Origin: Sphaerisporangium cinnabarinum
Lineage (GTDB): Bacteria > Actinomycetota > Actinomycetes > Actinomycetales > Cellulomonadaceae
Length of the DNA stretch: 64,000 bases
Direction: 5' to 3'
Assembly: GCA_003052455.1 (NCBI GenBank)
Contig: QAPD01000022.1
Location: 62,001 to 126,000 of the forward strand
Numbering within the stretch: position 1 is the stretch's first letter; each line of letters starts with the position of its first letter. Positions 4,634-22,912 of the stretch are shown here, in pieces. The position numbers and the translations under genes were made by a program. Below the pieces are notes generated by a model. It made no database searches and was not told where the DNA came from. It worked only from the letters and a program-made list of their open reading frames with translations.

Positions 4634-6325
4634 TCACTTCGCCTCGGCGTAGTGGTCGACGACCGCGACGGTCAGCGGGAAGTCGACCGGGAAGTCGCCG
4701 AACAGCAGGCGTCCCGCCTCGGCCGCCGCGGCGCGGACCTCGTGCGCGACCGTCTCGGCGAGCTCCGCCGGCGCGTGCACGACGACCTCGTCGTGCAGGA
4801 AGAAGACGAGGTGCGCACGGTCGGCGAACGGGGCGGGCGCCGCGCCGGGGGTCGCGGCGAGGGGCAGGTCCCACAGGCGCCGCCGGATCGACGCCAGCCA
4901 GCACAGCGCCCACTCGGCCGCGGTGCCCTGCACGACGAAGTTGCGCGTGAACCGGCCCCACGCCCGCGTGTACGACCGGGCCCGCGCCTGCGCGTCGGCC
5001 CCGGACGCGGCGTCCTCGGTGGCACCGGCGTCCTCGACCGCGTACGCCCCGTCCTGGGCGGCGTGCCACGACTCGCCGGGTCGCGGGGAGCTGCGGCCGA
5101 GGAGCGTCGAGACGACCTCGCCGCGCTCACCCGCCTGGGCGGCGCGCTCCACGAGGCCGATGGCGTCGGGGAACGCCTTCGCGAGCCGCGGCAGCACGAG
5201 CGCGCTGTCGCCCGTCGTGCCGCCGTACATCGCGCCGAGCATCCCCACCTTCGCGTGGTCGCGGGTCGCGACGGCGCCCGACGCGACGATCCCCGCGTAC
5301 ATGTCGCCGCCACGCCCTGCGGCGGCCATCCGCTCGTCGTGCGCGAGCCCCGCGAGGACGCGCGGCTCGAGCTGCGCGGCGTCGGCCACGACGAGCCTCC
5401 AGCCCGGGTCCGCGACGACGGCGCGCCGCACCTGCTTCGGGAGCTGCAGCGCTCCCCCGCCGCTCGACGCCCACCGGCCCGTGACGACCCCGCCCACGAC
5501 GTACTCGGTCCGGAACCGGCCGTCGTGCACCCAGGTGTCGAGCCACGCCCAGCCGTTCGCCGTGAGGAGCCGCGCAAGCTTCTTGTACTCGAGCAACGGC
5601 TCGACGACGGGGTGGTCCGTGCGCTCGAGCTCTCCCTTGCGCAGGGACCGCACGCCGACGCCCGCGTACTGCAGCGCCTTGAGCAGGTCGGGGTGGGAGT
5701 CGGGGTTGAGCGTGGGTGGCGCGTCGAGCGCGGCGCGGATGCGCGCGACGAGCTCCTCCATGCGCGCGGGCCGCTCTCCCGGCCGGGGGCGCGGCCCGAG
5801 CTCGCCGCTGAGGATCGCGTCGTGCACGTCGGCGCGCCACGGCACGCCCGCGTGGTGCATCTCGGCGGCGACGAGCGCGCCCGCGGACTCGCCGGCGAGC
5901 AGCAGGCGCAGCCGTCCGGCCGCCTCCGGGCCGTCCGCGGCGGCGACGGTCGCGAGCTGGTCTCGGAGCTCCGCGACCGGGTCGAGCCGCACGCTCGGGC
6001 CGTCCTGCGCGCCGAGCTCGAACAGCCCGACGGGCTGCGGCGGCACGGACGGGTCGCGCCCGGCCGGCACCGCGGCGAGCTCGTCCCACGGGCCGGGGTC
6101 GCGCCGCGCGAACGGCGTGCCCGCGACGAGCCGCGAGCGCCGCAGGAGCACGTGGGACAGACGCAGGTCGTGCGACCGCTCCACGCGTCGCCCGGCCGCG
6201 AGCAGGGGCGGGTACCACCGGTTCGTGTCGTCCCAGGTCTCGCGGACCGGGTCCGGCGGTCCGTCCGCGACGTGCTCGACCCGGGCCCGACCCGGCGAGC
6301 CGACGTGGACCGCGTACGTGCTCAC
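4634..6325 (-). CDS. DNA polymerase I-like protein without 5' nuclease domain
   Basis: 563 residues from GTG 6325, which overlaps the stop of the SWIM gene as GTGA. Family A polymerase motifs are in order: motif A VADAAQLEPRVLAGL at about residue 312 (Asp present), motif B RDHAKVGMLGAMYGG at about 357 (Arg, Lys and Tyr kept, the usual Phe replaced) and motif C HDEVV at about 509. The first 200 residues match the spacing of a 3'-5' exonuclease domain but lack the clear acidic Exo motifs. Families like this are annotated in actinobacteria as bifunctional 3'-5' exonuclease/DNA polymerase; no role is established to my knowledge. It is the last gene of the seven-gene operon and is not the housekeeping polA, which would carry a 5' nuclease. 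Confidence 0.85.
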   Translation of the reverse strand: MSTYAVHVGSPGRARVEHVADGPPDPVRETWDDTNRWYPPLLAAGRRVERSHDLRLSHVLLRRSRLVAGTPFARRDPGPWDELAAVPAGRDPSVPPQPVGLFELGAQDGPSVRLDPVAELRDQLATVAAADGPEAAGRLRLLLAGESAGALVAAEMHHAGVPWRADVHDAILSGELGPRPRPGERPARMEELVARIRAALDAPPTLNPDSHPDLLKALQYAGVGVRSLRKGELERTDHPVVEPLLEYKKLARLLTANGWAWLDTWVHDGRFRTEYVVGGVVTGRWASSGGGALQLPKQVRRAVVADPGWRLVVADAAQLEPRVLAGLAHDERMAAAGRGGDMYAGIVASGAVATRDHAKVGMLGAMYGGTTGDSALVLPRLAKAFPDAIGLVERAAQAGERGEVVSTLLGRSSPRPGESWHAAQDGAYAVEDAGATEDAASGADAQARARSYTRAWGRFTRNFVVQGTAAEWALCWLASIRRRLWDLPLAATPGAAPAPFADRAHLVFFLHDEVVVHAPAELAETVAHEVRAAAAEAGRLLFGDFPVDFPLTVAVVDHYAEAK

Positions 6326-8460
6326 GCGCTCGCCTCCCGCGCTCGGGGCCCGGGGTCGGGCGCGGCGGCGACGGCGCGCGCGAGCGTCCGGCCCCGGGCG
6401 GCGACGAAGCCGGCACGCAGGAGCCCGGCGGCGTCGGGCGCGTGCGCGACGAGCCCGACCGTGGCGGCGAGCGTCGTCGCCCCGAGGTCGTCGGCGGTGC
6501 GCGCGGCGCGCGCGAGCGCGCGCGCCTGGTGCGGCGTGAGGTACCGACGCCCTGTCGCGGCGAGCGCCACGACCGTGTCGAGCAGCGTGTCGCACACGTC
6601 CTCGACGGGCGTGGGCACGACCACGTCCCGCGCGTGCGTGCCCGCAGGCCCCCGCAGCGACCGGACGCGCGCCCGGAGCCGGGCCCACGGGGTCGACCAC
6701 GCCCGATGGTCGTACGCCGGTGTCAGCGTCGGGACGACGACGTCGAGACCCTCGCCCGGGCGGTCGACGAACAGGCCGACGGCCTCGTCACGCCGCGACG
6801 CCAGGTCGCGCTCGACGGCGACGGCGACCACGCGCCGGCTCCCCGCCGCGACCCCGAGCAGGGTGTCGCACGCCGCCTCGTCCGCGGCGTCGACGCGCAC
6901 GACCGTCTCCGCGCCGTCCGCCGCGACCAGCGTCCACGTGAGCTCCTGCGCGACCTCGTCGAGCCCGATCGCCCCCGCCTCACGGACCATGACGACCCGC
7001 ACGACGGCGGGCGTCCGCCCGAACCCGGCCTCGGCCCGCGGCGGGGTCGCCGCGGTGCGGGCCGCGACGTCACGGAGCTCGTCGGCGTCGAGCGCCCCGA
7101 GCGGCTCGACGGCGGGCCCCTCGCCCGCGCGCAGCCCCGTGCCCGCGCGCTCGGTCGCGCCGCGGAGCGCGAACGGGCCGCGGCACAGCGCCTCGACCGA
7201 GCGGCCCCAGACGAGCGGGAGGTCCCACGAGCGCCGGAAGGTCGGGTCGGCGCCCGGCGGGCGGCCGGTGGTGACCGATCGGACGCGCCCGGCGTCCGCG
7301 TCCCACAGGTGCACGGTCACCCCGCGCGCGCCCGACGCCGCGACCCACCAGCGCGCACCGAGCGGCACGACCCGGGCCAGGTCGGTCGTGCGCTCGTCGG
7401 GCGTGCCGGCGTCGGGCGGCGGGTCCGCCTGCACGTACGCCCACAGCTCGGCCAGGGCCAGGAGGCAGTCCGTCTCGTCCACCGCGTCGCGGCGGTCCAC
7501 CAGCGCCTCGAGCCGCCCGACCGCGGACGTGACGAGGCGCTGGACGGCGGGCCGTCGGCCGAGCCGCGCGACCACGCCCGCACCGCGCAGCTCCTCCAGG
7601 TCGTCGCGGCCCACGTGCGAGAGCCCGACGTCGAGCAGCCGCTCGACCGCGCGCACGACCTCGTCGGCCACCGCTCGTGCCTCCGGGACGCCCGTGGCGC
7701 GGGGCGCGGTCGCAGCCCGCTCGGGCCAGGGCCACGGGCGGTCGTGCGCGCGCCACACGTGCGCGAGCGCCTCCAGCCGCCAGCGGCGCTCGTCCGCGTC
7801 GCTCCACGCCGTCCCCTCGCGGGCCACGAGCATGCCCGCGAACCCCGCCCCCGCGACGTACGTGACGCGTGGCGCGCCCGGCCACGAGACCACCGCGCGC
7901 GGGCCGTCGACCACCACCTCCACGGGAGGGCCGCCGACCGCCGCCTCCGCGGGGAGACCGTCGACCGTCGCCCCCGCGGGGAGACCTTCGAACGTCGCCC
8001 CCGCGGGAGGGCCGGGCGCCGTCTCGGCGACCGACCGCACGACGGCGGCGCCCGCGGCACGGTGCACGACGCGCGGGTCGAGCGCGAGGATCTCGGCCAC
8101 CGGGTCCGGGGTGGGAGCGGGCGCCGCCGCGCCGTCACCTGCCGCGGCGGGAGTCTCCGCGGGCGTGGAGCCCGCCTCCCGCACCCACAGGCTCGCGGCC
8201 ACGACGTGCTGGCACGTGCCCGGCGTCGGGCACGCGCACCGCGCCTCGGCAGGACCACCCGCATCGAGTTCGACCTGCATCCCGCCCACGGACACCACGA
8301 CGCCGTCGGGGCGCGACTCGACCGACTCGACCCGCCCGGCGGCGACGTCCTTGCGGGCGCGCCGGACGAGGCCCGGGCTCGCGAGGGTGGCGAGCGCGTC
8401 GTCGTCGTACCCCGCGTACACCGCGGCCCACGCACCGAGCACGGCGGCGACCCCGCTCAC
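6322..8460 (-). CDS. SWIM zinc-finger protein (YehQ-like)
   Basis: 712 residues from GTG 8460, which overlaps the VWA stop as GTGA. The SWIM motif CxCx5CxH is at residues 75-85 (Cys75, Cys77, Cys83, His85). The rest is a large alpha-helical region without recognised catalytic residues, as in E. coli YehQ. Residues about 150-185 are four tandem 9-residue repeats (see separate entry) that probably form a flexible linker. SWIM domains bind DNA, RNA or proteins; in this operon type the protein always travels with MoxR, DUF5682 and VWA partners and is presumed to be part of the same complex. The partner role is inference. Confidence 0.88.
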   Translation of the reverse strand: MSGVAAVLGAWAAVYAGYDDDALATLASPGLVRRARKDVAAGRVESVESRPDGVVVSVGGMQVELDAGGPAEARCACPTPGTCQHVVAASLWVREAGSTPAETPAAAGDGAAAPAPTPDPVAEILALDPRVVHRAAGAAVVRSVAETAPGPPAGATFEGLPAGATVDGLPAEAAVGGPPVEVVVDGPRAVVSWPGAPRVTYVAGAGFAGMLVAREGTAWSDADERRWRLEALAHVWRAHDRPWPWPERAATAPRATGVPEARAVADEVVRAVERLLDVGLSHVGRDDLEELRGAGVVARLGRRPAVQRLVTSAVGRLEALVDRRDAVDETDCLLALAELWAYVQADPPPDAGTPDERTTDLARVVPLGARWWVAASGARGVTVHLWDADAGRVRSVTTGRPPGADPTFRRSWDLPLVWGRSVEALCRGPFALRGATERAGTGLRAGEGPAVEPLGALDADELRDVAARTAATPPRAEAGFGRTPAVVRVVMVREAGAIGLDEVAQELTWTLVAADGAETVVRVDAADEAACDTLLGVAAGSRRVVAVAVERDLASRRDEAVGLFVDRPGEGLDVVVPTLTPAYDHRAWSTPWARLRARVRSLRGPAGTHARDVVVPTPVEDVCDTLLDTVVALAATGRRYLTPHQARALARAARTADDLGATTLAATVGLVAHAPDAAGLLRAGFVAARGRTLARAVAAAPDPGPRAREASA
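7904..8011 (-). repeat. Four 27-bp tandem repeats inside the SWIM gene
   Basis: The coding strand repeats a 27-bp unit four times, giving GLPAGATVD-like nonapeptides (PPAGATFEG, LPAGATVDG, LPAEAAVGG, PPVEVVVDG). The first two units are the most alike at DNA level. The unit keeps the reading frame, so copy-number change would only lengthen or shorten a linker after the SWIM motif. Confidence 0.8.
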
Positions 8461-9656
8461 GGGAGCACCCCGCCCAGCCACTCGGCGAACCGCTCCGGCG
8501 TGAGCGCCGCGATCTCCATGCCCTGCTCCGCGAGCCTGCGCGCGACGCCGCGGTCGTACGCGGGGTTCGCCTGCCCGTCGAGGGCCGCGAGCCCGAGCAG
8601 CCGGACGCCCGACGCGTGCAGGCGCCCCACCGCGGACACGAGCTGGGACACCGAGCCGCCCTCCTCGAAGTCGCTGACGAGCGCGACGACGGTGCGCCGC
8701 GGGTCGCGCACGTGCTGCTCCGCGTACCGCACGGCGCGCGCGATGTCGGTCCCGCCGCCGAGCTGCGCGGTGAGCAGCACCGTCACCGGGTCGTGCGCGA
8801 GGTGTGACATGTCGACGACCGCCGTGTCGAACAGCACGAGGCGGACCGTGATCCCGGGCAGCCCCGCGAGGATGCCCGCGCTCACCGCGCTGTAGAGCAC
8901 CGAGGCCGCCATGGACCCCGACTGGTCGACGAGCAGCACGACGTCGTACGACAGCGCTCTGCGCCGCCGCGCCGAGAACCGCAGGTCCGTGACGAGCAGA
9001 CGCTTGCGCTCCGGGTCCCAGCGGCCGAGGTTGGCGCGGACGGTCCCGGCGGCGTCGAACGTACGGCTCGACCGCACGAACGACCGACGGGACCGGTCCC
9101 GTCGACCGTCGACGGCCGTCACGAAACGGGGGCGCAGGCGGCGCACCACGTCGTCGACGACCCGCGCGACGATCCGTCGCAGCCCGTCCTGCACCTGCGG
9201 CCCGAGCCTGCCTCGCACGCGCAGGAGCGCCGACGCCAGCTCCGTGCTCGGCTCGACGGCCTCGACCGCCTGCGGGTCGGCGAGCAGCTCCGTCATGCCG
9301 TACCGGCCGACCGCCTCGACCTGCATGCGCTCGAACGTCTCGCGCGGGAACAGCTCGCGCGCCGACCCCAGCCAGTCGAGCCCCTCGACGACCGACCCTC
9401 CGCGGCCACCTCCGCGACCGCTCCCGCCACCGCCGTCCGGCTCGCCGCCGCTGCCGTGCCGGTGGCCGCGCGCGGTGTACTCGCGGTCGTAGAGGTGCCC
9501 GAGCGTGCGGTCGATCGCCTGGTCCGACGGCGCCACGGGCAGGGCGTCGCCCGCGTACCGGCCCAGCACGAGCCGCCAGCGCCACGCGGCCTCCCGGTCG
9601 TCCGCGCGGACGTCGGCACGGACGTCCACGCCGAGGCCGTCGCCGCCCGCGGTCAC
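8457..9656 (-). CDS. VWA-domain protein (YehP-like)
   Basis: 399 residues from GTG 9656, which overlaps the DUF5682 stop as GTGA. A von Willebrand A domain fills the C-terminal half with an intact MIDAS: DQSGS at 244-248, the GGTD threonine at 303 and SDFEEGG at 329-335. The first 100 residues are helical with a Gly-rich linker at about 68-88. VWA proteins paired with MoxR ATPases usually bind the ATPase through the metal site and act as adaptors that remodel a target, as in cobalt and magnesium chelatases. No signal peptide or membrane segment, so it should be cytoplasmic. Confidence 0.92.
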   Translation of the reverse strand: MTAGGDGLGVDVRADVRADDREAAWRWRLVLGRYAGDALPVAPSDQAIDRTLGHLYDREYTARGHRHGSGGEPDGGGGSGRGGGRGGSVVEGLDWLGSARELFPRETFERMQVEAVGRYGMTELLADPQAVEAVEPSTELASALLRVRGRLGPQVQDGLRRIVARVVDDVVRRLRPRFVTAVDGRRDRSRRSFVRSSRTFDAAGTVRANLGRWDPERKRLLVTDLRFSARRRRALSYDVVLLVDQSGSMAASVLYSAVSAGILAGLPGITVRLVLFDTAVVDMSHLAHDPVTVLLTAQLGGGTDIARAVRYAEQHVRDPRRTVVALVSDFEEGGSVSQLVSAVGRLHASGVRLLGLAALDGQANPAYDRGVARRLAEQGMEIAALTPERFAEWLGGVLP

Positions 9657-12160
9657 GAGACGCTCCCGCGTGCCCACGCGCCGAGCCCGTCCCGCTCGAG
9701 GACCGCGACGAGCTCGCGCTCCACGACGAGCGCGGCCCGCAGGTCGTCCTCCGAGACGTCCACGCGCCGGTCCAGCGCGTCCGCGCGCGTCCCGGTCCGG
9801 GCGGCGACGCGCTCGGCGAGCCGGTGCGTCTCGGTGGGCCGCAACCACGTGAACGCGCGGCGCAGGTCCGGCAGGACCGCGCGGAACGCGTCCTCGTCGA
9901 GACCGCGCAGGCCCGCGTCGACCGCGTCGAACATCTCGGGCGTGTGGAGCAGCAGGTCCGGGGCCGCGCGCAGGACCCCGCCGAGGAACGCCGTCGCGGC
10001 CACCGGGTCCGCCCCCGGCGCGAGCTGGGCGCGCACGCGCTCGACGAGCCCGTTCTCGCCGGGCTGGTCGCCCAGCTCGTCGTCGACGGCGGCGAACGCG
10101 GTGAGCGCACCGCGCACCGCCGGGGAGGCGCCGGCGTCCTCGCGCACGCGCGCGAGCGCCTGTCCCACCGCGGTGGGCGCCGAGCCCGGTCCGTCCCGGC
10201 CCGCGCCGCGCACGTCGCGCACGAGGGACCGCAGCGCGACGAGGCTCGCCAGGGCGTCGTCCTGCGTCGTCGCGTCGGCCGCCGCGACGTCCGGGACCAG
10301 GTACGCGGCCGTGGCCAGCCCCTGCTCCGCGAGGTCGAGCAGGGCCTCCGCGTGGTCGCCCAGCTCCAGCTCGACGCGCGCCCGCCACAGCCCCACGAGC
10401 CGCCGCATGCCCGCGACGACCGACGCGAGCGACGGGTCCACGTCGAGCGTCGACCGCACGAGCGCGACGAGCGGGGGCAGCCGCTCCGGCAGCCCGACGA
10501 CGACGCACTGCGCGACGAGACGCGCGACGGCGTCGCTCGAGCGCTCCTCGCGCGCCCGGTCGCGCGCGTCGTCGAGCAGCGCGACCGCGACCGCCTCGAG
10601 CGTCGCGCCGCGGTGGGAGAGCTCGACGAGGCGCGCCTCGACGAGCGGTGTCCAGGCGTACGTCCACTCCTCCAGCACGAGCCCCAGCCCGCGGCCCGCG
10701 ACGTGGTCGGGGCCGGACACCCGGCGGGCGAGCCCCAGCTCGAGGAACGCGCACAGCGCGAGGAACCGGCGCCGGTCGCGGTGCGCGGCACGACGGCGGG
10801 CGTCGAGCCGCACGGTGCGCGGCACGGCGTCGGACACGTCGAGGCGCAGCGCCCGCGCGCGGGCCCGGGCCTCCTCGACGAGCGGCGGGGCTGCGCCGCC
10901 CGGGGCGACGTCCCCGAGCGCGCGCCCGGCGAAGACCTCGGCGACCGCGAGGCCGAGCGGGCGGTCGCCCGCGGCGTCCAGGTCGTCCGGGTCCTTCACG
11001 TAGCACGAGGTGATCGCGTCGAGCAGGTCGGTGCGGCACGGCCAGGGCCGTTCGCGCAGGACCGCGAGCCGGTGCGCGTGCTCGACGGCGGCCTGGGACT
11101 GCGCGACGCTCACGAGCGCCCCGCGCTCCGACGCCCCACGCCCGACGTCGACGAGCACCCCGGTCGCGGCGGCAGCGGGCCCGGCCGCGTCGTGGTGCGC
11201 GGCCCAGAGGCGGTCGTAGTAGCCCGGTGCGGGCATGCCCGCGCCGTACCCCCGCAGGGCGTCGAGCCGCTCGTCGTCGTAGCGGACGAGCCACGCGGGA
11301 GCGTCGGCGAGCGCGCCGTACCCGTCCGCGGGGCGCCGCGCCACGACCGCCGCGCCGTGCTCGCTCCCGACGAGCGCCTCCACGAGGGCGAGCGTGTGGA
11401 ACGCGCCCGTCACGACGACGACCGGCCCGTCCGCACGCGCCGCGTGCTCCGCGACGCGTGCGGACATGCGCGCCTCGCGGTCGAGCGAACCGTCGGCGGC
11501 GAGCGCCTCCTCCTCGTAGTCGAGCCGCGCGAGCGCGGCCCACGCGAACACGTCGTCGACGAGCTCGCGCCAGTCCTGCAGGCGCGCCGTCTCGCGCGCC
11601 TCGAAGAGGTGGTCCCACAGCTCGTCGTGGTCGCGGCACCCGAGCCGCTCCGCGAGCCGGGCGACCGTGCGCGAGTGCGCGAGGTGGCGCTCCGCGAGGA
11701 CGGTGCGCGCGGCGGCCTCCCGCTCGTCGTCCTCCTCGGTCGCCCGCTCCCCCCACGGGGAGTCGACGAACGCGAGCTCCGCCCCCGCCGCGTGGCCCGC
11801 GCGCAGCGCGACCCACTCCGGCGAGTACCGCGCGAGCGGGTAGAAGCCCGCGGCGCGCACGCCGCCTCCCGCGGCGTCCGCGGGATCGCCCGCGAGGCTG
11901 AGGACCGCGACGGGCGGGACCGTCTGCTCGTCGAGCAGCGCGGGCAGCAGGCGCGTGTACTCCTCAGGTCCCTCGACGAGCACGACGGACGGCCGGACCT
12001 CGGCGACGAGCGCGGCCACCGCGACCGCGCACGCAGGGCTGTGGTGGCGCACCCCGACGAGGTGCACGCCGTCGCGCTCGCGCAGCAGCGCGAGGTCGTG
12101 GGCCGCCTGGCGCAGCCGCGACGGCGCGGCGTCCCACGCGGCACGCAGGGCTACCGCCAC
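9653..12160 (-). CDS. DUF5682 protein (YehM-like)
   Basis: 835 residues from GTG 12160, starting 10 bases inside the end of the MoxR gene. The N-terminal domain has the family signature GVRHHSPAC at 36-44 and LVEGPEEYTRL at 61-71, followed by DSPWGER, RDHDELWDHLFEAR and VVTGAFHTLAL. The His/Glu/Gly-Pro pattern recalls TraB/EreA-like folds, a resemblance I cannot test here. The C-terminal 400 residues are helical repeats. Function is unknown; the E. coli homologue YehM sits between YehL and YehP just as this gene sits between MoxR and VWA, so it is probably the substrate or the catalytic partner of the ATPase module. Confidence 0.87.
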   Translation of the reverse strand: MAVALRAAWDAAPSRLRQAAHDLALLRERDGVHLVGVRHHSPACAVAVAALVAEVRPSVVLVEGPEEYTRLLPALLDEQTVPPVAVLSLAGDPADAAGGGVRAAGFYPLARYSPEWVALRAGHAAGAELAFVDSPWGERATEEDDEREAAARTVLAERHLAHSRTVARLAERLGCRDHDELWDHLFEARETARLQDWRELVDDVFAWAALARLDYEEEALAADGSLDREARMSARVAEHAARADGPVVVVTGAFHTLALVEALVGSEHGAAVVARRPADGYGALADAPAWLVRYDDERLDALRGYGAGMPAPGYYDRLWAAHHDAAGPAAAATGVLVDVGRGASERGALVSVAQSQAAVEHAHRLAVLRERPWPCRTDLLDAITSCYVKDPDDLDAAGDRPLGLAVAEVFAGRALGDVAPGGAAPPLVEEARARARALRLDVSDAVPRTVRLDARRRAAHRDRRRFLALCAFLELGLARRVSGPDHVAGRGLGLVLEEWTYAWTPLVEARLVELSHRGATLEAVAVALLDDARDRAREERSSDAVARLVAQCVVVGLPERLPPLVALVRSTLDVDPSLASVVAGMRRLVGLWRARVELELGDHAEALLDLAEQGLATAAYLVPDVAAADATTQDDALASLVALRSLVRDVRGAGRDGPGSAPTAVGQALARVREDAGASPAVRGALTAFAAVDDELGDQPGENGLVERVRAQLAPGADPVAATAFLGGVLRAAPDLLLHTPEMFDAVDAGLRGLDEDAFRAVLPDLRRAFTWLRPTETHRLAERVAARTGTRADALDRRVDVSEDDLRAALVVERELVAVLERDGLGAWARGSVS

Positions 12161-13284
12161 AGGTCGCCCGCCGCCGTGAGGAAGTCCTTCCAGCGCGCGT
12201 CCGACCGCGCACGCTCCCGCACGACGTTGTCCACGTAGTGCCGCAGCCGCCGCGCGTCCTCCTCGTCGCCCTTGAGCGCGACGCCGCCCACCTGGCGCGC
12301 GACCTGCCCGGCCGTGACCGTGCCGTCGCCGAGGTAGCGCGCCTCGAGCGACGCCGCGATCGCGACGTTCACCGCCTCCGCCGTCGACATCACGGTCTCG
12401 GGGCGCTTGACCGGTGCGCCGCTCGCCGTCGTGCCGGTGCGCAGGTCCTGGAACACGGTGACGAGCACCTCGAGCACGTCGCGGTCGAGCACGGGCCGGT
12501 CGGCGGCCGGCCCGAGCTCCGCGGTGAGGCGCGTCTCGACGAGCTCGATCTCGAACGCGCGGTCGCGGATCGGCGCGACCGTCTCGAAGTTGAAGCGCCT
12601 CTTGAGCGCGGCCGACATCTCGTGGACCCCGCGGTCGCGGAGGTTCGCGGTGGCGAGCACGTTGAACCCGGGCCGCGCCGCGACGCGGGCGTCGGCGCCG
12701 AGCTCGGGGACCATGAGCTGCTTCTCGGAGAGCACGGACACGAGCGTGTCCTGGATCTCCGGGGCGCAGCGCGTGATCTCCTCGAACCGCGCGACGCGCC
12801 CGCTCTCCATCGCGCGGTAGACGGGCGACGGGACGAGCGAGCGCTCGCTGGGCCCCTCGGCGATGAGGAGCGCGTAGTTCCACGAGTACCGCACGTGGTC
12901 CTCGCTCGTGCCCGCGGTGCCCTGCACCGTGAGGGTCGACGTGCCGCTCGCGGCCGCCGCGAGCAGCTCGGACAGCAGGGACTTCGCCGTGCCGGGCTCG
13001 CCGACGAGCATGAGGCCCTGCCGACCGAGCAGCGACACGACCGCGCGGTCGACGAGCGGGTCGTCGCCGAAGAACTTGCGGCTCACGCCCAGCTCCCGGT
13101 CGCCCACGACGAACGCGCGCACGGCGCGCGGGCTCAGGCGCCAGCCCGGCGGGACGTCGGCCCCGCGCCGGGCGTCGGCGTCCGCGAGCGCCGCGAGCTC
13201 GTCGGCGTACCGGACCTCCGCCGGCGGTCGCAGCTCCGCGAGCGCCGGGGGCGCCTGCTCGTCACCGGTCGTCGTGCTCGTCAC
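12151..13284 (-). CDS. MoxR-type AAA+ ATPase (YehL-like)
   Basis: 377 residues from GTG 13284, which overlaps the BrkB stop as GTGA. Walker A is GEPGTAKS at 95-102; the Walker B position reads RFEEI at 167-171, with Glu in place of the usual first Asp; sensor 1 is in ATANLRD at 212-218 and the arginine finger region is ALKRRF at 227-232. MoxR ATPases form hexamers that remodel or load cofactors into target proteins together with a VWA partner, here two genes downstream. There is no membrane segment. The E. coli homologue is YehL by gene order and motif pattern. Confidence 0.92.
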   Translation of the reverse strand: MTSTTTGDEQAPPALAELRPPAEVRYADELAALADADARRGADVPPGWRLSPRAVRAFVVGDRELGVSRKFFGDDPLVDRAVVSLLGRQGLMLVGEPGTAKSLLSELLAAAASGTSTLTVQGTAGTSEDHVRYSWNYALLIAEGPSERSLVPSPVYRAMESGRVARFEEITRCAPEIQDTLVSVLSEKQLMVPELGADARVAARPGFNVLATANLRDRGVHEMSAALKRRFNFETVAPIRDRAFEIELVETRLTAELGPAADRPVLDRDVLEVLVTVFQDLRTGTTASGAPVKRPETVMSTAEAVNVAIAASLEARYLGDGTVTAGQVARQVGGVALKGDEEDARRLRHYVDNVVRERARSDARWKDFLTAAGDLWR

Positions 13285-14693
13285 CCGGGCTCCTCCTCGG
13301 TCCGGTCGCGGGCACCGTGCCCGTGGTCCTGCGGGTCAGCGTAGGAGCCGCGTCCCACACGGCCGGCGCCGATGCGCCGGGGAGGGTCGTCGACGGGTCC
13401 GGCGAGCGCGGCCGTCGTCGTGGCGCCCTGCCCGTCGGCCCACGACCCGCCCGCGGCCCGACCCGCCGGGACCACGCGGTGCGGGTCGGCCTCCGCGTTC
13501 ACGACGCCGCCCACGAGCACGACGATGCTCGTGAGCCAGCCCCACAGGACCCCGGCGAGGACGAGGCCGAGCATCTGCCCGGCCGCCTGGACGACCGCCG
13601 TCGTCCCGGCCTCCGTGCCCGGCGCCGCCGGTCCCGCGAGCCGGACGTAGAGGCCGAACCCCCACGACACGAGCAGGACGCCGCCGGTCCCGACGGCCGC
13701 GCCCGGCAGGCACCGCCGCCACGACGTGTCGACGTTCGGTGCGTACCGGTAGAGCAGCGTGAGGTACGCACCGCAGACGAGCACCACCGTCGGCCAGCGC
13801 AGCACGTCCCACGTCTGCCGGAATGCCGCGTCGAGACCGAGCCGCTCGGCGAGGTCGGCGCCGTCGCCCAGGAGCGGGCCGACGACGACGAGCGCGACGA
13901 CGGACACCGCCGTGACGATCGCGCCGAGGGCGAGCGCGACCCCCAGGACGTACTGCGCCACGACCCCGCGGCGCCGCTCGACGCCGTACGCGTCGTCCAG
14001 CGCACGGACCGCGGCGCGGAAGACGCGGCTCGCGAGCCAGAGCGCCACGAGGAAGGACCCGACGGCGAACCCGGTGCGCTGCTCGTCGAGCAGGCTGTCG
14101 ACGAGCGGCGCGACGACGGAGGTCGACACGTGCTCGGCGAACACCGTGGTGAGCCCGCCGACGATCGACGAGCGGATCGAGTCGACGGTGTCGTCGCCGA
14201 GGAGCGGGCGCAGGAAGCCGAGGCTGGACCCGATCGCGGTCGTCAGCGGGATGAGCGAGATGAGCCCGTAGTACGACATCTCGGCGGCGAGGCCCGTGAC
14301 GCGGACCCCGGCGACGCGGAACGCCGAGCGGGCGGCGACGTCGGCGACGCGCACGCGCGGTCCGGTGCGCGCCGCGGCCGCGAGCACGCGGTCCTGCCAC
14401 GGCACGCGGCCCGCCGCGCGCTCACGCCGCCGCGCCGTCCACGGGCGGACCACCGCTCGCGCGCACCACGTCCCCGCCGCAACCGCGCCGGCCGCGACGG
14501 GCACGCTCGCGAGCGCGCCGAGCGCCCGGGTCCCGCCGTCGTCCGCGGCGACGGCCACCACGACGACGACCGCCCCGACGCCCGCGAGGGCGAGCAGCGT
14601 CGACGTCGCCGTGCTCACCGTGGACCGGACTGCCGGCGACCGGCGCGCGAGCACGGCGACGAGCAGCCAGGCGAGCGTCGCGACGACGATCAC
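13281..14693 (-). CDS. YihY/BrkB-family integral membrane protein
   Basis: 470 residues. Two hydrophobic helices lead (residues about 1-75), then the YihY/BrkB core from about 115 to 400: AEMSYYGLISLIPL, the long amphipathic stretch with SSIVGGLTTVF, then four further membrane helices (VVAQYVLGVALALGAIVTAVSVVAL, LRWPTVVLVCGAYLTLLYR and others). The last 70 residues are polar and cytoplasmic. Once called ribonuclease BN, the family has no proven enzyme activity. Its stop overlaps the MoxR start, and the DUF4132 stop is only 36 bases upstream, so it is a true operon member. The E. coli yeh locus has no such gene here. It could tether the complex to the membrane (inference). Confidence 0.87.
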   Translation of the reverse strand: MIVVATLAWLLVAVLARRSPAVRSTVSTATSTLLALAGVGAVVVVVAVAADDGGTRALGALASVPVAAGAVAAGTWCARAVVRPWTARRRERAAGRVPWQDRVLAAAARTGPRVRVADVAARSAFRVAGVRVTGLAAEMSYYGLISLIPLTTAIGSSLGFLRPLLGDDTVDSIRSSIVGGLTTVFAEHVSTSVVAPLVDSLLDEQRTGFAVGSFLVALWLASRVFRAAVRALDDAYGVERRRGVVAQYVLGVALALGAIVTAVSVVALVVVGPLLGDGADLAERLGLDAAFRQTWDVLRWPTVVLVCGAYLTLLYRYAPNVDTSWRRCLPGAAVGTGGVLLVSWGFGLYVRLAGPAAPGTEAGTTAVVQAAGQMLGLVLAGVLWGWLTSIVVLVGGVVNAEADPHRVVPAGRAAGGSWADGQGATTTAALAGPVDDPPRRIGAGRVGRGSYADPQDHGHGARDRTEEEPG

Positions 14694-14729
14694 GGGGCGG
14701 CGCCGTCGCTCACGGGAGCGTCCGCCGGG

Positions 14730-17700
14730 TCACCACTGGCTCTTCCGCTCCCAGTCGGGGTCGAACGACCCCGCCTCGGCCACCGCCACGTAGTCGCGGT
14801 ACGCCTCCGCGACGAGGACGGGCGGCAGGTCCGCGATCCGCGCGGTCCCCCGCCCGGACCCGCGGCCCGTCCGCTCGAACGTCAGCGCCGTCACCGCGGC
14901 CGGGATGTTCTCCTCCGGGACGAACGACCCCGTGAACTCGATCTGCACGACGATCCCCGCGCTCGTGAACGCCTTGGTGTACGCGCTGAACCACCCGGCG
15001 TCCTCGGCCTGCGAGCGGGAGTAGCCCCGCTTCGTCGCGCGCCCGCGGAGGGAGAAGCTGTCGGAGAACCAGCCCTTGTGGTCGTCGATCGCCGTCGCGC
15101 CCGCGAGGACGTCGGGCGTCGCGACGTCGAGCTGCGCGAAGAGCGGGGTGACCTCGTAGTCGGCCAGGTGCGCCGTCCAGGCCGCCGTCGCCTCCGGACC
15201 GAGCAGGACGGCGTGCGCGAGCCCGACCGTCGACCCCTCCCCGAGCTCCACGTCCTCGTCGTCGGCGTCGACGAGCGCGCCGCCGTCGGGCCGGAACGGG
15301 CGGGCACGCTCCGTCCCGGGGTTCTCGACCCAGACGAGCCGCTCGACGAGCCGCGACATCACGGGGTGCCCGAGGAGGTACTCCTGCCACTCCGACGCCG
15401 TCCACGTGCGGCCCACGCACATCGCCTCGCAGAGCCGCTGGGTCTGCAGGGCGACGACGGCCTTGAGCTCCTTGCGACTCGCGGTGAGCTGCTTCTTGGC
15501 GGCCGCGACGAGCTCGGGGTCGTCCTGCGCCCGGGGTGCCGGGAGCGCCTTGACCACCTTCCCGGCGTCGCTCGTGAGCTCGAGCGTGAACGCGGGGGTG
15601 ATGCGCCCGACGTACTCCCGGGAGCCGAGGTCGAGGTGGAGCAGCCCGTCGTCCTCGAAGCCGGCGGTCTGGACGGTGCGGTCGGCGAGCTGGTCCGCCG
15701 TCCAGCCGCGCCGCTCCGCGAGCTCGCCCGCGAGCCGCTGCGCGGTCTCCTGGACCGTGGCCTGGCGGAACCGCCGCGAGACGGCGAGGAGCTCCTGGAT
15801 CGCGGCCGGCTGCCCGTTGGCGGCGAGCGCGTGCACGAGCGCCTCGGTCTGCGCGCGGCGCCCGACGTGCGCCTTCGCGTAGCGCTGGAACGTCGCGGCG
15901 AGCTCGGCGCCGGGCATCGCGACCGTCAGGGCGAGCAGACCCTTGTCCTTGACCGCCGAGCCGACGTACGTGGCCTGGTGCTCGCGGTAGAGGTCGCGAT
16001 GGTGGTCCTCGACCGTCTTGGACGCCTCGACCGAGTAGTGCTCGGGCGAGCGCTTGGCCCACGCCTGGTACTGGTCGTACCGCAGCTGGGCACCGGCCGT
16101 CGCGTACGCGTCGCTCTCCTGCGGCGAGGGGTTGCGCGTGTCCTGCGCGACCCACGCCGCGAGCACGTGGCTGCCGAGCCGGGCGCGGTCCTCCTCCCGG
16201 AGCAGCGACAGGTACCGCTCCAGCAGCCCGGCACCGCTCGGGTCCTTGAGCTTGACCGCGAGCACGACCCACCAGCGCAGGACCGTCGGGTCCACGGGCG
16301 AGCCGTCCGTCGCCCAGCGGGCCGCGGGCAGCGCGTCGAGGTCCAACCACGCCATGCTGACGGGCTTCTTCGCGCGCAGTCCCTTGGTCGCCTCCGCGAG
16401 CAGCGCCTCGGGCGCGAGGTCGGCGGAGATGTCCTCGCCGAGCGCCTCGAGCGCCGTGAGGAGCGTGGCGCGCACCACCTCGCTGCGCTCCCTGCCGAGC
16501 GCGGCGCGCAGCGCGGGCACCGCGCCGGCGTCACCGAGCCGCGCGAGCCACTCGGCCGCCGTGCGCCGGATCTCGGCCCGGCCGTTCCCGAGCCCCTGCT
16601 CGGCCAGGTCTCGCACGCCCGGGTGAGACAGCAGGACCTCTTGCGCGGCCGAGCGGTACGAGCGGCCCTCCCCGAGGGCGAGCTCGGTCAGGCGCGGCAG
16701 GAAGCGGCGCGGGACCTGCGGGAACTGCCCCAGCAGCGCGATCGCGCGCGCCGGCTTCGCCGTGCCGTAGGTGCGCTCGCGGTCGTCGAGGGCCTCGGCG
16801 AGACGGTCGAGCCGCCCGGCGTAGTACGGCCACGCGTTCCGGGGCGAGACCGTGTCCGCCGCCCACCACGACGAGAAGTAGAGGTCGTCGACCAGCCCGT
16901 CCGCGTCCTCACGGCCCACCTGGCGCAGCGCCGCCTCGAGGGCGCGGAGGTCGACGTCGAGCAGGTCCCCGTCGTGGAGGCGGTACCACGCGAAGTGCTC
17001 GCGCGGGCCGCGTTCCGCGACGACCAGGCGCAGACGGTGCAGGAGCGTGGTGCCCGGGAGGCGGGCGAAGACGGCAGGCGCCGAGAGCCGACGCATCGTC
17101 ACCCGGTCGGGGCGCCGCGTGCTCGTGCCGGAGAGGAACGCGGTGAACACCCGGATGTCGTCGTCCGAGATGCCGGGCAGCTCCTTGAGGTCCTCCTCGA
17201 CGGCCTGACGACGCCACCGCGCCCAGCCCTCGTCACCACCCTTCGCCGGGTGCGCCGCACGCTCCGCCCGGGCACGCTCCAGCGCCGTGTCGATCGCCGC
17301 CCGCGCAGCGCGGACGGCGTCCTCGCCGAGGACGACGTCAGGCAGCGGCTCGTACGGCGGTACCTCGATCTCCGGCTCGTCGCCCCGTGCCGCGTCGAGG
17401 ACGCGAGCGCGCTCGACGGTGTCGCGCAGCAGCGTCGCCCGGGCGCCCGTCGACCGCACGGCCGTCTCCTCCAGAGCGGCCAGGCCGCCGTCGACCTGGG
17501 CGAGCCGCGTCACCACGGCACCGAGCCGCGAGGCCGGGAGCGACGTGAGCAGCGGGGCGAGGAGCTCGAGCTGCCGCGCCGCGGGGAGCGGGACGAGCGC
17601 GGCGACCGCCGCCTCGCGCACCGCCTTGCTCGTGTCCGCGGCGAGCACGGCGAGCAGCGGGGCGAGCGACTCCGTCGCCGCCGGGTCCGCCGCGACGAGG

Positions 17701-18455
17701 GCCACGAGCTCGCCGCGCCCCGCGGCGCTCACCCCCGGCAGCACCTGCGTCGCGACGTCCAGGTGCGCGACGACGAACTCCCGCGCCGGGTCGCCGAGCA
17801 GCGCCGGGCCCAGGTGCCGCGACGCCCAGCCGGCTGACACCGGCCGCTCGAACAGCTCGCGCAGCACGACCGCCGGCGCGTCCGCCTCCGGCACGCCGCC
17901 CTCGACCGCGAGGGTCACGAGCAGGTCCGGCGTCCAGCGGTCGGGCGCGCCCTTGCCGTTCTTGCCGTGGCGGCGCTCGTTCGCGCGCCGCGACATGTCG
18001 TTGACGAGCGTCGTGAGCCAGCGCGGGTCCGACGACCGCTCACGGTCCACCTCGGACGAGACCGCGCTGAGCACCCTGCCGAGGCGCACGAGCTCCGGGA
18101 CGGTGACCGAGTCGGAGAGCGTGTAGAGGTTGGAGCGCGCGGTGACCGCCTTGGCGGACGTCCACCCCGGCACGGCGACCTTCAACCGGTCGTCCTGGGC
18201 AGGGGTCGTCCACGAGTAGACCCCGGACTGGCCGGGGCGGCCGAGGAGGGCCTCGACGTCGCCGCCCCGCAGCGCCTCCAGCTCGAGCAGCACCTCCGGC
18301 CCCTCGCCCCGGTGCACGTACGCGACCGCACGGTCCGCGAGCTCCGGCGACGCGACAGCGAGCACCCTTAAGGCGTCGACGAGCCGAGCGCTCGGGCGGT
18401 GGGCTCCCGTCTGCCCCTCGTCACGCCGGAACAGACCCTTGACCTTCTCGAGCAC
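14730..18455 (-). CDS. DUF4132-domain protein with HEAT-like repeats (YehI-like)
   Basis: 1241 residues from GTG 18455 (AGAGG just upstream). Residues about 150-1000 are helical with HEAT-like repeat character (for example DAGAVPALRAALGRERSEVV). The DUF4132 domain lies near the C-terminus, about 1040-1120, seen as HAVLLGPEATAAWTAHLADYE. The family is large and uncharacterised; E. coli YehI, in the region once named molR for an effect on molybdate gene expression, is the best known member. No WGR domain is visible. It is the first gene of the operon; the next start is 36 bases away. Long repeat proteins of this kind usually act as scaffolds or sensors. Confidence 0.85.
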   Translation of the reverse strand: MLEKVKGLFRRDEGQTGAHRPSARLVDALRVLAVASPELADRAVAYVHRGEGPEVLLELEALRGGDVEALLGRPGQSGVYSWTTPAQDDRLKVAVPGWTSAKAVTARSNLYTLSDSVTVPELVRLGRVLSAVSSEVDRERSSDPRWLTTLVNDMSRRANERRHGKNGKGAPDRWTPDLLVTLAVEGGVPEADAPAVVLRELFERPVSAGWASRHLGPALLGDPAREFVVAHLDVATQVLPGVSAAGRGELVALVAADPAATESLAPLLAVLAADTSKAVREAAVAALVPLPAARQLELLAPLLTSLPASRLGAVVTRLAQVDGGLAALEETAVRSTGARATLLRDTVERARVLDAARGDEPEIEVPPYEPLPDVVLGEDAVRAARAAIDTALERARAERAAHPAKGGDEGWARWRRQAVEEDLKELPGISDDDIRVFTAFLSGTSTRRPDRVTMRRLSAPAVFARLPGTTLLHRLRLVVAERGPREHFAWYRLHDGDLLDVDLRALEAALRQVGREDADGLVDDLYFSSWWAADTVSPRNAWPYYAGRLDRLAEALDDRERTYGTAKPARAIALLGQFPQVPRRFLPRLTELALGEGRSYRSAAQEVLLSHPGVRDLAEQGLGNGRAEIRRTAAEWLARLGDAGAVPALRAALGRERSEVVRATLLTALEALGEDISADLAPEALLAEATKGLRAKKPVSMAWLDLDALPAARWATDGSPVDPTVLRWWVVLAVKLKDPSGAGLLERYLSLLREEDRARLGSHVLAAWVAQDTRNPSPQESDAYATAGAQLRYDQYQAWAKRSPEHYSVEASKTVEDHHRDLYREHQATYVGSAVKDKGLLALTVAMPGAELAATFQRYAKAHVGRRAQTEALVHALAANGQPAAIQELLAVSRRFRQATVQETAQRLAGELAERRGWTADQLADRTVQTAGFEDDGLLHLDLGSREYVGRITPAFTLELTSDAGKVVKALPAPRAQDDPELVAAAKKQLTASRKELKAVVALQTQRLCEAMCVGRTWTASEWQEYLLGHPVMSRLVERLVWVENPGTERARPFRPDGGALVDADDEDVELGEGSTVGLAHAVLLGPEATAAWTAHLADYEVTPLFAQLDVATPDVLAGATAIDDHKGWFSDSFSLRGRATKRGYSRSQAEDAGWFSAYTKAFTSAGIVVQIEFTGSFVPEENIPAAVTALTFERTGRGSGRGTARIADLPPVLVAEAYRDYVAVAEAGSFDPDWERKSQW

Positions 18456-18596
18456 CCTCTACCTCACCGTCACGTCGTCGCTGCTGGTGGGCCCGATGCT
18501 AGGGGTGGCCGCCGACACGGCGCGGGCCAGTATCCGGGCGACGCGCGCCTCGTCCGAGCGAGGCACGGGCGTGCCCGGCGGGCGAAGGAGGGGTGG

Positions 18597-18670
18597 TGGG
18601 CCCGGAGGGACTCGAACCCCCGACATCCACGGTGTAAGCGTGGCGCTCTAACCAGCTGAGCTACAGGCCC
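18597..18670 (-). tRNA. tRNA-Val (UAC anticodon)
   Basis: 74-nt cloverleaf read from 18670. The acceptor GGGCCTG pairs with CGGGCCC, the anticodon stem CCACG/CGTGG encloses loop CTTACAC (anticodon TAC), and the T arm contains GTTCGAGTC. The CCA end is encoded at 18596-18594. A TAGGCT -10 element lies about 17 bases upstream. Confidence 0.95.
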
Positions 18671-19634: not shown

Positions 19635-20064
19635 TGTCGTGTCGTTCCTTTCCTCGTCCTGTCGGTGCGGTGGCCGTCGCGCGCACCCGGGCGGGCGCCC
19701 GCGCGCACGACGACCTGCCGTGTCTGGCAAAGGTAGCCCACCGCAGGGTGCGGTGCTTGGCAAGGCACCGCCCACGGACAGCCGTCCCGGGGGTCGTTCG
19801 CCGTGGTCGGGCACGGCCGGGCTGCCGTACGACGGCGGCGCGCACGCCGTCCGGCCCGTGTCGCCGAAATCACGCCCTCTTGACCACCCGATGGTGTGAC
19901 TTACGCGCGCGTTGTGAACACAATGGGTAGACCACCCTGGTCTCGTGAAGAGGCGCGGTCGCCACCAGCGGCCGCGGCGCCGTGCCCGGAGTGGGCCCGA
20001 GACGGGTGTCGGCCGTGTACCGCGCGGCCGAGCGCCCGGCATCCGACGAGATATGAGGTTGCTG
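19635..20064. promoter_or_regulatory. Divergent regulatory region of DUF3052-ahpE and aceE (no gene seen)
   Basis: 430 bases without a credible gene. It must hold the promoters of both transcripts. Visible structure: TTGTGAACACAA at 19912-19923 (arms TTGTG/CACAA around AA), two TGGCAA-containing segments at about 19735 and 19762, and the aceE ribosome site GAGG at 20055-20058. No clear -35/-10 pair can be chosen by eye. A candidate ATG at 20053 precedes the aceE GTG by 12 bases. Confidence 0.5.
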
Positions 20065-22827
<2,763 letters not shown>

Positions 22828-22846
22828 CCCGCACCGCCTGAGACGA

Positions 22847-22882
22847 CGACGGCCGGTCACCCCGCGGGGTGACCGGCCGTCG
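22847..22882. terminator. Bidirectional terminator between aceE and the convergent TPR-like gene
   Basis: A 36-base perfect palindrome (18-base arm beginning CGACGGCCGGTCACC) placed 20 bases after the aceE stop and 31 bases after the stop of the convergent gene. No U-run, as is common in GC-rich actinobacteria. Confidence 0.8.
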
Positions 22883-22912
22883 CCGTCTCCGGAAGGTGCC
22901 CGACGCCGCGGG

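What the first reader, a model, noticed from the sequence alone, without database searches (positions are those of the whole stretch)
4634..18455. Expanded yeh-like MoxR-VWA operon with a membrane protein and a DNA polymerase
Seven minus-strand genes run DUF4132, YihY/BrkB, MoxR AAA, DUF5682, VWA, SWIM, DNA polymerase I-like. The DUF4132-MoxR-DUF5682-VWA-SWIM core keeps the order of E. coli yehI, yehL, yehM, yehP, yehQ, a locus without a known biochemical role. Here it is fused by overlaps to a membrane protein and a polymerase. MoxR-VWA pairs remodel targets, DUF4132 looks like a scaffold, SWIM binds nucleic acid, and the last gene could synthesise DNA. A membrane-tethered, ATP-driven DNA maintenance, cofactor or conflict system is a reasonable hypothesis.
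Basis: partly seen in the sequence, partly recalled or inferred. Interest (0 to 1): 0.78.

Follow-up and report, generated by a model that had tools for sequence, protein, structure and literature searches.

The report
Widespread yeh operon beside unrelated neighbours
Five of the seven genes are an actinobacterial copy of a widespread but uncharacterised bacterial operon (E. coli yehI-yehL-yehM-yehP-yehQ), while the membrane protein and the DNA polymerase look like ordinary chromosomal neighbours; one of the five, DUF5682/YehM, is predicted to carry an EreA/ChaN-type enzyme fold, which gives the operon a testable activity.

Summary
The seven minus-strand genes are real and tightly packed (DUF4132, BrkB, MoxR, DUF5682, VWA, SWIM, polymerase; 18455-4634). 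The 'expanded system' reading does not hold. The five-gene core matches E. coli yehI-L-M-P-Q and recurs across bacteria: 74 of 80 named loci have all five, some in other orders. The polymerase lies near the core in 13 of those 80, all from four genera; it is nearly universal in the window's family (110 of 121 genomes, of which 38 have DUF5682). BrkB sits in the operon only in Cellulosimicrobium, intact in 3 of 7 core-bearing genomes. In three of four core-less Cellulosimicrobium genomes BrkB and the polymerase still stand side by side after a tRNA-Val. They look like residents, not parts. New here: the predicted DUF5682 N-terminal domain has as its 12 best structural matches ChaN, EreC, HopBA1, RRSP-type and related chains, with invariant H39/H40, E63, R228, M232 and H255; a helical-repeat region follows. 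I infer an ATP-driven MoxR-VWA machine controlling this hydrolase-like subunit; nothing of that is tested. A DNA-damage role is hinted at by published DUF4132 regulation elsewhere; no convincing SOS box was found here.

The parts
14730..18455 (-). DUF4132 protein (YehI homologue) with HEAT repeats; core gene 1
   Evidence: Pfam PF13569 135.3 bits, HEAT_2 37.7 bits; blastp to E. coli YehI E 3.6e-24
13281..14693 (-). BrkB/YihY-type membrane protein; read here as a resident neighbour, not a core gene
   Evidence: Pfam PF03631 139.6 bits; not found in the operon outside Cellulosimicrobium in the loci examined; next to the polymerase without the core in L083, L084, L086
12151..13284 (-). MoxR-family AAA+ ATPase (YehL homologue); core gene 2
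   Evidence: Pfam AAA_5 128 bits; 49% to YehL; Walker A GEPGxxKS in 26 of 26
9653..12160 (-). DUF5682 protein (YehM homologue): N-terminal EreA/ChaN-like predicted fold (about residues 1-330) and C-terminal helical repeat; core gene 3
   Evidence: Pfam PF18934 336.5 bits; AlphaFold models pLDDT 87.7 and 87.8; VIA-align and hhalign
8457..9656 (-). VWA_CoxE-type protein with MIDAS DxSGS (YehP homologue); core gene 4
   Evidence: Pfam PF05762 155.1 bits; 42% to YehP; MIDAS motif 26 of 26
6322..8460 (-). SWIM zinc-finger protein (YehQ homologue); core gene 5
   Evidence: CxCx5CxH at residues 75-85, a CxC..CxH motif in 25 of 25; blastp to YehQ E 2.6e-7; Pfam SWIM below cut-off
4634..6325 (-). Second family A DNA polymerase (NF011538); read here as a resident neighbour, not a core gene
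   Evidence: NCBIfam NF011538 697.8 bits; over cut-off in 110 of 121 family-sample genomes, most without DUF5682
18594..18670 (-). tRNA-Val(TAC), landmark beside the locus with or without the core
   Evidence: ARAGORN

Best explanation
The locus is a composite. Five genes (DUF4132, MoxR, DUF5682, VWA, SWIM) form one conserved functional unit, the actinobacterial version of E. coli yehI-L-M-P-Q. BrkB and the polymerase are chromosomal residents of the tRNA-Val to polymerase interval in which this core lies. Shown: gene content; conservation of the five as a set in several orders; presence of BrkB and polymerase without the core; intact Walker A, MIDAS, SWIM and polymerase motifs. Inferred: the MoxR ring, coupled to substrates by the VWA protein, remodels or switches the DUF5682 protein, whose N-terminal domain has a predicted EreA/ChaN-like fold with a conserved His/Glu/Arg set and is probably a hydrolase; the DUF4132 HEAT protein and the SWIM protein supply scaffold and target recognition. 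Most likely target class: a cellular protein or complex rather than DNA itself. My confidence in the composite reading is about 0.85, in the enzyme assignment of DUF5682 about 0.5, in the ATP-switch mechanism about 0.35; the figure below is for the whole statement.
For: Core as a set: all five genes in 74 of 80 named loci (Actinomycetota, Gammaproteobacteria, Burkholderiales, Planctomycetota, Verrucomicrobia and others), 62 in the window's order, 9 permuted, 3 with DUF4132 on the other strand. Same order in 24 fetched loci of the phylum and in E. coli. Among the 40 largest ORF clusters of the 80 loci I recognised no sixth partner common to the set. Independence: core-less Cellulosimicrobium G204, G229, G315 have tRNA-Val, BrkB, polymerase and G275 tRNA-Val, polymerase; polymerase and core trees keep the same genus groups. 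DUF5682: the 12 best VIA-align rows are a Tetrahymena complex IV subunit (three entries, Z 10.6-10.2), ChaN 2g5g (8.0), HopBA1 (7.5), 2rad/3b55 (6.8/6.7), EreC (6.4/6.3), two entries titled bacterial protein toxins and one RRSP (6.0-5.7, same residue numbering); then a drop to 4.2. hhalign to a ChaN profile gives 70.7% probability, against 0.3 and 0.2% for MoxR and VWA controls. Weak Pfam ChaN hits, E 0.026 and 0.07, in two of four proteins scanned.
Against: Foldseek found no match at E <= 0.001 (best 0.03), and VIA-align rows 5-12 have Z under 8, a range the tool warns may be only a common arrangement. That these hits form one superfamily is recalled. The hhalign ChaN match covers 34 columns and the EreA match is not significant (1.3%); a PDB sequence search with the N-terminal profile gave nothing up to E 5; the window protein itself has no Pfam ChaN hit. 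No substrate, activity or interaction is shown. The six assessable core-bearing Cellulosimicrobium genomes overlap SWIM with the polymerase by 4 nt, so coupled expression there is likely. Of the 32 family-sample genomes whose DUF5682 is of the window's type (my split by score, up to about 370 bits, split matches included), 24 have the polymerase nearby.
Confidence: 0.6

Rival explanations
1. The polymerase is a recruited sixth member in four genera: the core acts in DNA repair and the polymerase fills gaps under shared control.
For: Within 8 kb of DUF5682 in 24 of 38 family-sample genomes, all those of Cellulosimicrobium (7), Oerskovia (7), Promicromonospora (8) and genus g150, which holds Antribacter (2) (G262 split over two contigs); 4-nt overlap in Cellulosimicrobium. 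A D. radiodurans DUF4132 protein is in the DdrO regulon and rises after mitomycin C (PMC8533742, passages). SCO3434, annotated DNA polymerase I, rises with recA and lexA in S. coelicolor when topA levels are altered (PMC6637917, passages); that it belongs to NF011538 is a guess.
Against: Not nearby in 14 of 38 family-sample genomes (8 of them with the window's DUF5682 type; G289 at 11.6 kb; G265 ends 6.8 kb from DUF5682, so not fully excluded) and in none shown of 16 other phylum-sample genomes. Gaps of 1.5 kb with another ORF in 4 of 5 Oerskovia loci, 2.7 and 4.7 kb in two g150 loci, 2.1 kb in one of three Promicromonospora loci. SOS-box counts are not clearly above control. tRNA-Val and polymerase stand together without the core.
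Confidence: 0.16
2. The core is a cofactor or metal insertion chaperone like CoxD-CoxE or NorQ-NorD; DUF5682 binds haem or metal (as ChaN does) or is the client.
For: VWA_CoxE domain; MoxR-VWA pairs act in metal insertion in NorQD and CoxDE (PMC7159879, passages; PMC9976466 and PMC13036017, starts of abstracts in a listing); ChaN, in complex with haem, is the fourth VIA-align row.
Against: I recognised no metalloenzyme among the 40 largest ORF clusters beside the core, but these were not scanned against families, so this is weak.
Confidence: 0.22
3. The core is a conflict (anti-phage) system like the MoxR-vWA ternary systems.
For: MoxR-vWA ternary systems are proposed conflict systems (PMC7159879, passages); DUF5682 presence is patchy in the family sample, 38 of 121 genomes.
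Against: PADLOC gave no hit for the five core proteins at E <= 0.01; bpMoxR Pfam below cut-off; in E. coli some part of the locus is found in 5342 of 5426 genomes, at least 80% of it in one place in 3976, unlike a patchy defence island. Defence genes around the loci were not scanned.
Confidence: 0.12
4. All seven genes form one membrane-tethered DNA maintenance machine.
For: Seven co-oriented genes with overlaps at five of six junctions.
Against: Intact BrkB is missing from the operon in 4 of 7 core-bearing Cellulosimicrobium genomes and in all loci of other genera examined; polymerase proximity seen only in four genera.
Confidence: 0.05

Closest known systems
E. coli yehI-yehL-yehM-yehP-yehQ locus
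   Same: Same five families in the same order
   Different: E. coli has yehK between yehI and yehL and no BrkB or polymerase there; YehQ has two CxC..CxH motifs, the window protein one
MoxR-VWA pairs CoxD-CoxE, NorQ-NorD, RavA-ViaA
   Same: MoxR ATPase next to a VWA protein; CoxE-type VWA domain
   Different: Here with DUF5682, SWIM and DUF4132; no client enzyme identified
vWA-MoxR ternary conflict systems (Kaur et al. 2020, PMC7159879; passages seen)
   Same: MoxR and vWA genes plus a third conserved protein
   Different: The terms SWIM, YehL, DUF4132, MolR and TIKI do not occur in that paper's main text; no VMAP or iSTAND match appeared in the Pfam scans
EreA/ChaN-type fold (EreC, ChaN, HopBA1, RRSP; that these form one superfamily with TIKI/TraB is recalled)
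   Same: Predicted fold of the DUF5682 N-terminal domain and position of an R..M...G..H stretch
   Different: Very low sequence identity (10-16%); followed by a HEAT-like helical region
NF011538 'bifunctional 3'-5' exonuclease/DNA polymerase'
   Same: Equivalog over cut-off; polymerase motifs A, B, C in 37 of 38, the miss being a fragment
   Different: No DxE in the first 215 residues of the window protein, so the exonuclease site may be lost

Membership tests
yehI-L-M-P-Q type operon | DUF4132, MoxR, DUF5682, VWA and SWIM genes together | tested here: met
yehI-L-M-P-Q type operon | Gene order of the E. coli locus | tested here: met
   same order in E. coli and 62 of 80 named loci; interrupted here by BrkB
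NF011538 polymerase | score over the curated cut-off (389 bits) | tested here: met
   697.8 bits
NF011538 polymerase | working 3'-5' exonuclease site | tested here: inconclusive
   no DxE in residues 1-215 of the window protein; D[TIVL]E in the first 120 residues of 7 of 38
EreA/ChaN/TIKI superfamily (DUF5682 N-terminus) | fold | tested here: met
   on a predicted model only: 12 best VIA-align rows Z 10.6 to 5.7, next row 4.2; Foldseek weak, best E 0.03; grouping of the hits recalled
EreA/ChaN/TIKI superfamily (DUF5682 N-terminus) | sequence profile match | tested here: inconclusive
   hhalign ChaN 70.7% over 34 columns, EreA 1.3%; Pfam ChaN E 0.026/0.07, below cut-off, in two of four proteins scanned and not in the window protein
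EreA/ChaN/TIKI superfamily (DUF5682 N-terminus) | hydrolase activity or haem binding | not testable with these tools
   needs purified protein
MoxR-VWA chaperone pair | Walker A in the ATPase, MIDAS DxSxS in the VWA protein | tested here: met
   26 of 26 each
vWA-MoxR ternary conflict system | VMAP, iSTAND or beta-propeller third component | tested here: inconclusive
   none named in the Pfam scans; bpMoxR 22.6 bits against 27
Known anti-phage systems in PADLOC | HMM match of core proteins | tested here: not met
   no hit for the five core proteins at E <= 0.01

The most novel reading that the evidence does not exclude
The yeh core is an ATP-gated hydrolase machine of a kind not yet described: a MoxR-VWA pair that controls an EreA/ChaN-fold enzyme (DUF5682/YehM) carried on a helical-repeat arm, guided by SWIM and DUF4132/HEAT proteins, possibly in the DNA-damage response.
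Probability: 0.28. Interest if true: 0.72.

Novelty: new member of a known kind. Interest (0 to 1): 0.42.

Why it matters
The seven-gene claim is explained mostly by neighbourhood, which should stop BrkB and the polymerase being read as parts. At least part of the core is found in 5342 of 5426 E. coli genomes and the set occurs across phyla. In the open-access library no paper holds 'DUF5682'; three hold 'DUF4132', and the passages of two of them, plus the listing of the third, do not treat the five genes as a system. The fold assignment of DUF5682/YehM names residues to change in a laboratory strain.

Tried and rejected
SOS control of the locus: consensus boxes with up to 2 mismatches lie upstream of 2 of 25 DUF4132, 1 of 37 polymerase, 1 of 40 MoxR and 0 of 8 BrkB genes, against 4.65% of random pieces, so not clearly above chance. 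In the window's DUF4132 upstream the best is 3 mismatches. E. coli yehH, yehI, yehK and yehL show no CTG-N10-CAG box within about 300 nt (at up to 9 mismatches to the consensus); yehF has a weak one.

A sixth conserved partner: of the ORF clusters (100 aa or more) in 80 loci I looked at the 40 largest; as far as coordinates tell, they are mostly frames overlapping core genes, plus the polymerase region and local neighbours. They were not scanned against families.

Whole-length DUF5682 fold search was dominated by helical repeats, so the N-terminal domain was predicted alone.

BrkB 'remnant': four core-bearing genomes without BrkB keep about 25 codons like the end of the window's BrkB before MoxR. 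Core-less BrkB genes end differently, so this stretch may be the MoxR leader into which BrkB reads; I do not use it as proof of deletion.

Literature: a search on Tiki/TraB/ChaN/EreA words returned unrelated papers.

No structure was predicted for DUF4132 or SWIM (both jobs went to DUF5682). Promoters and terminators were not scanned with the tool.
Full report
Observation. The seven genes exist as described, on the minus strand. From DUF4132 (18455-14730) there is a 36-nt gap to BrkB (14693-13281), then overlaps to MoxR (13284-12151), DUF5682 (12160-9653), VWA (9656-8457), SWIM (8460-6322) and the polymerase (6325-4634). A tRNA-Val lies upstream at 18670-18594. The window lies in a 4.39 Mb genome; the closest named locus is Cellulosimicrobium funkei, 96% in DUF5682.

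The core. E. coli K-12 carries yehI, yehL, yehM, yehP, yehQ in this order, each related to the window's protein. In these, 78 have MoxR, 79 VWA, 78 SWIM and 75 DUF4132 within the fetched flank. All five are in 74 loci: 62 in the window's order, 9 permuted on one strand, 3 with DUF4132 on the other strand (recount; best hit of each gene, so a paralogue could be counted). The six incomplete loci are L118, L143, L181, L193, L194 and L196; of these L118, L193 and L194 are cut by contig ends close to the core, while L143 and L196 lack genes although flank was available. A set kept through rearrangement is the best evidence that these five work together. The query profile was built on Actinomycetota, so the sample leans to that type.

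A second DUF5682 type. In Streptomyces-type genomes (name inferred) and some genomes of the window's family, a higher-scoring DUF5682 sits with MoxR and VWA, and DUF4132 and SWIM were not detected with the window's proteins. One Streptomyces-type locus, L097, has DUF4132 with MoxR, DUF5682 and VWA.

The polymerase. NF011538 is over its cut-off in 110 of 121 genomes of the family sample; 38 of the 121 have DUF5682 at E <= 1e-20. It lies within 8 kb of DUF5682 in 24 of these 38: all 7 Cellulosimicrobium (one, G262, split over two contigs), 7 of 7 Oerskovia, 8 of 8 Promicromonospora and 2 of 2 of genus g150, which holds Antribacter (distances: 3.5 to 7.9 kb between matched domains). It is not shown within 8 kb in the other 14, where the shortest distance on one contig is 11.6 kb (G289); in G265 DUF5682 is 6.8 kb from a contig end. 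Eight of the 14 have the window's DUF5682 type, six only the other type. In the phylum sample 17 genomes have DUF5682; apart from the window's own, none of 16 shows the polymerase nearby (for 15 of them; for G124 the fetched locus has no hit), though G042's DUF5682 is 2.7 kb from a contig end. In the named set it is in 13 of 80 loci: Cellulosimicrobium 3, Oerskovia 3, Promicromonospora 6, Antribacter 1. Between SWIM and polymerase there are about 1.5 kb with a carbonic-anhydrase-like ORF (name recalled from its motif) in 4 of 5 Oerskovia loci and 86 nt in the fifth, 2.7 and 4.7 kb in the two g150 loci, and 0.1, 0.4 and 2.1 kb in three Promicromonospora loci. The 4-nt overlap was seen only in Cellulosimicrobium: the window and L056-L060. 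The own genome has another family A polymerase match in a 931-aa frame, probably the housekeeping PolA.

BrkB. Intact BrkB between DUF4132 and MoxR occurs in G000 and G285, and before MoxR at a contig start in G309, out of seven core-bearing Cellulosimicrobium genomes. G246, G295, G303 and G262 have only 158-167 nt there (stop codon included). Of four Oerskovia loci with a full DUF4132 frame, three overlap MoxR directly and one (L063) leaves 20 nt; none has BrkB there. In the named set BrkB is intact in 2 of 80 loci (L118, L166), with a short stretch in L117.

Why they are neighbours. Cellulosimicrobium genomes without DUF5682 still have AhpC, tRNA-Val, BrkB and polymerase in a row (G204, with 2.8 kb between tRNA-Val and BrkB; G229; G315) or AhpC, tRNA-Val and polymerase (G275). 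G207 and G211, of other genera, have tRNA-Val and AhpC within about 5 kb of the polymerase, in G211 on the other strand. The polymerase tree (32 rows) puts core-bearing and core-less Cellulosimicrobium in sister clades; the core tree keeps the same genera, with weak support at some deep forks. So the core sits in, or was lost from, an interval between tRNA-Val and a resident polymerase. Which of gain and loss happened is not settled.

DUF5682. AlphaFold gives mean pLDDT 87.7 for the whole protein and 87.8 for residues 1-334 alone. VIA-align rows 1 to 12 for the N-terminal model are a Tetrahymena complex IV subunit (three entries), ChaN, HopBA1, 2rad, 3b55, EreC (two), two entries titled bacterial protein toxins and one RRSP entry with the same numbering, Z 10.6 to 5.7 with 148-211 residues aligned; row 13 has Z 4.2. 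That these proteins belong to one superfamily is recalled, and rows 5-12 are in the range where the tool warns of common arrangements. Foldseek ranks five chains of the same list first, none significant. Invariant residues in 35 sequences include R38, H39, H40, S41, P42, E63, R228, E229, M232, G252 and H255. hhalign places the R228-M232-H255 stretch on ChaN's RD..MA...G..H stretch (70.7%) and, without significance, the HH/E63 stretch on EreA's H...E stretch (1.3%); MoxR and VWA controls give 0.3 and 0.2%. The C-terminal half matches HEAT-like repeats, Z up to 8.8, within the range the tool warns about for helical repeats.

Mechanism. Walker A, MIDAS and SWIM motifs are intact in 26, 26 and 25 of as many proteins compared. 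MoxR-VWA pairs elsewhere are described as remodelling or activating a client (PMC7159879, passages; PMC9976466 and PMC13036017, starts of abstracts in a listing). By analogy I infer that DUF5682 is the subunit they control and that DUF4132 and SWIM recruit targets. No step of this has been tested.

Context. E. coli has some part of the locus in 5342 of 5426 genomes and at least 80% of it in one place in 3976, which fits a chromosomal housekeeping or stress system better than a mobile defence island. Of published hints, a D. radiodurans DUF4132 protein (DRA0166) belongs to the DdrO regulon and is induced by mitomycin C, and the same paper says MolR was described as a LexA-regulon member (PMC8533742, passages). 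I found no convincing box at the window's operon. PMC9334617 (passages) mentions the E. coli metG/DUF4132/yeh region only as an insertion site.

Print, as far as searched: no paper with two of DUF5682, DUF4132 and MoxR; three papers with two or more of the yeh gene names, none on function by title; DUF4132 in three papers, DUF5682 in none. Subscription papers are mostly not held.

Noticed in passing
window 6325-4634: The polymerase labelled bifunctional has no DxE motif in its first 215 residues, so its exonuclease half may be inactive; 7 of 38 sequences compared show D[TIVL]E in the first 120 residues.
   Followed up: partly
window 13285-13360 and L056, L058, L059, L061: About 75 nt before MoxR (from GTGTGGGAC) are almost unchanged in genomes with and without BrkB; it may be a leader or internal promoter of the MoxR-to-polymerase part.
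   Followed up: no
L062, L063, L064, L113 between SWIM and polymerase: A 284-288 aa carbonic-anhydrase-like ORF (name recalled from its motif) sits between core and polymerase in four of five Oerskovia loci.
   Followed up: no
L116 2475-3299 and 3411-6270: In E. coli yehF (PF05406, a WGR-type family by recall) and the pseudogene yehH precede yehI; yehF has a weak LexA-like box.
   Followed up: no
window 19870-23508: A long minus-strand frame without a Pfam match is conserved (64-93%) near the AhpC gene in relatives; the true coding frame was not settled.
   Followed up: no
L100, L104 and the genomes G023, G107, G128, G161, G182, G193: Six of seven Streptomyces-type genomes (name inferred) with DUF5682 have two or three DUF5682 matches; in L100 and L104 DUF5682 and VWA are read in one open frame.
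   Followed up: no
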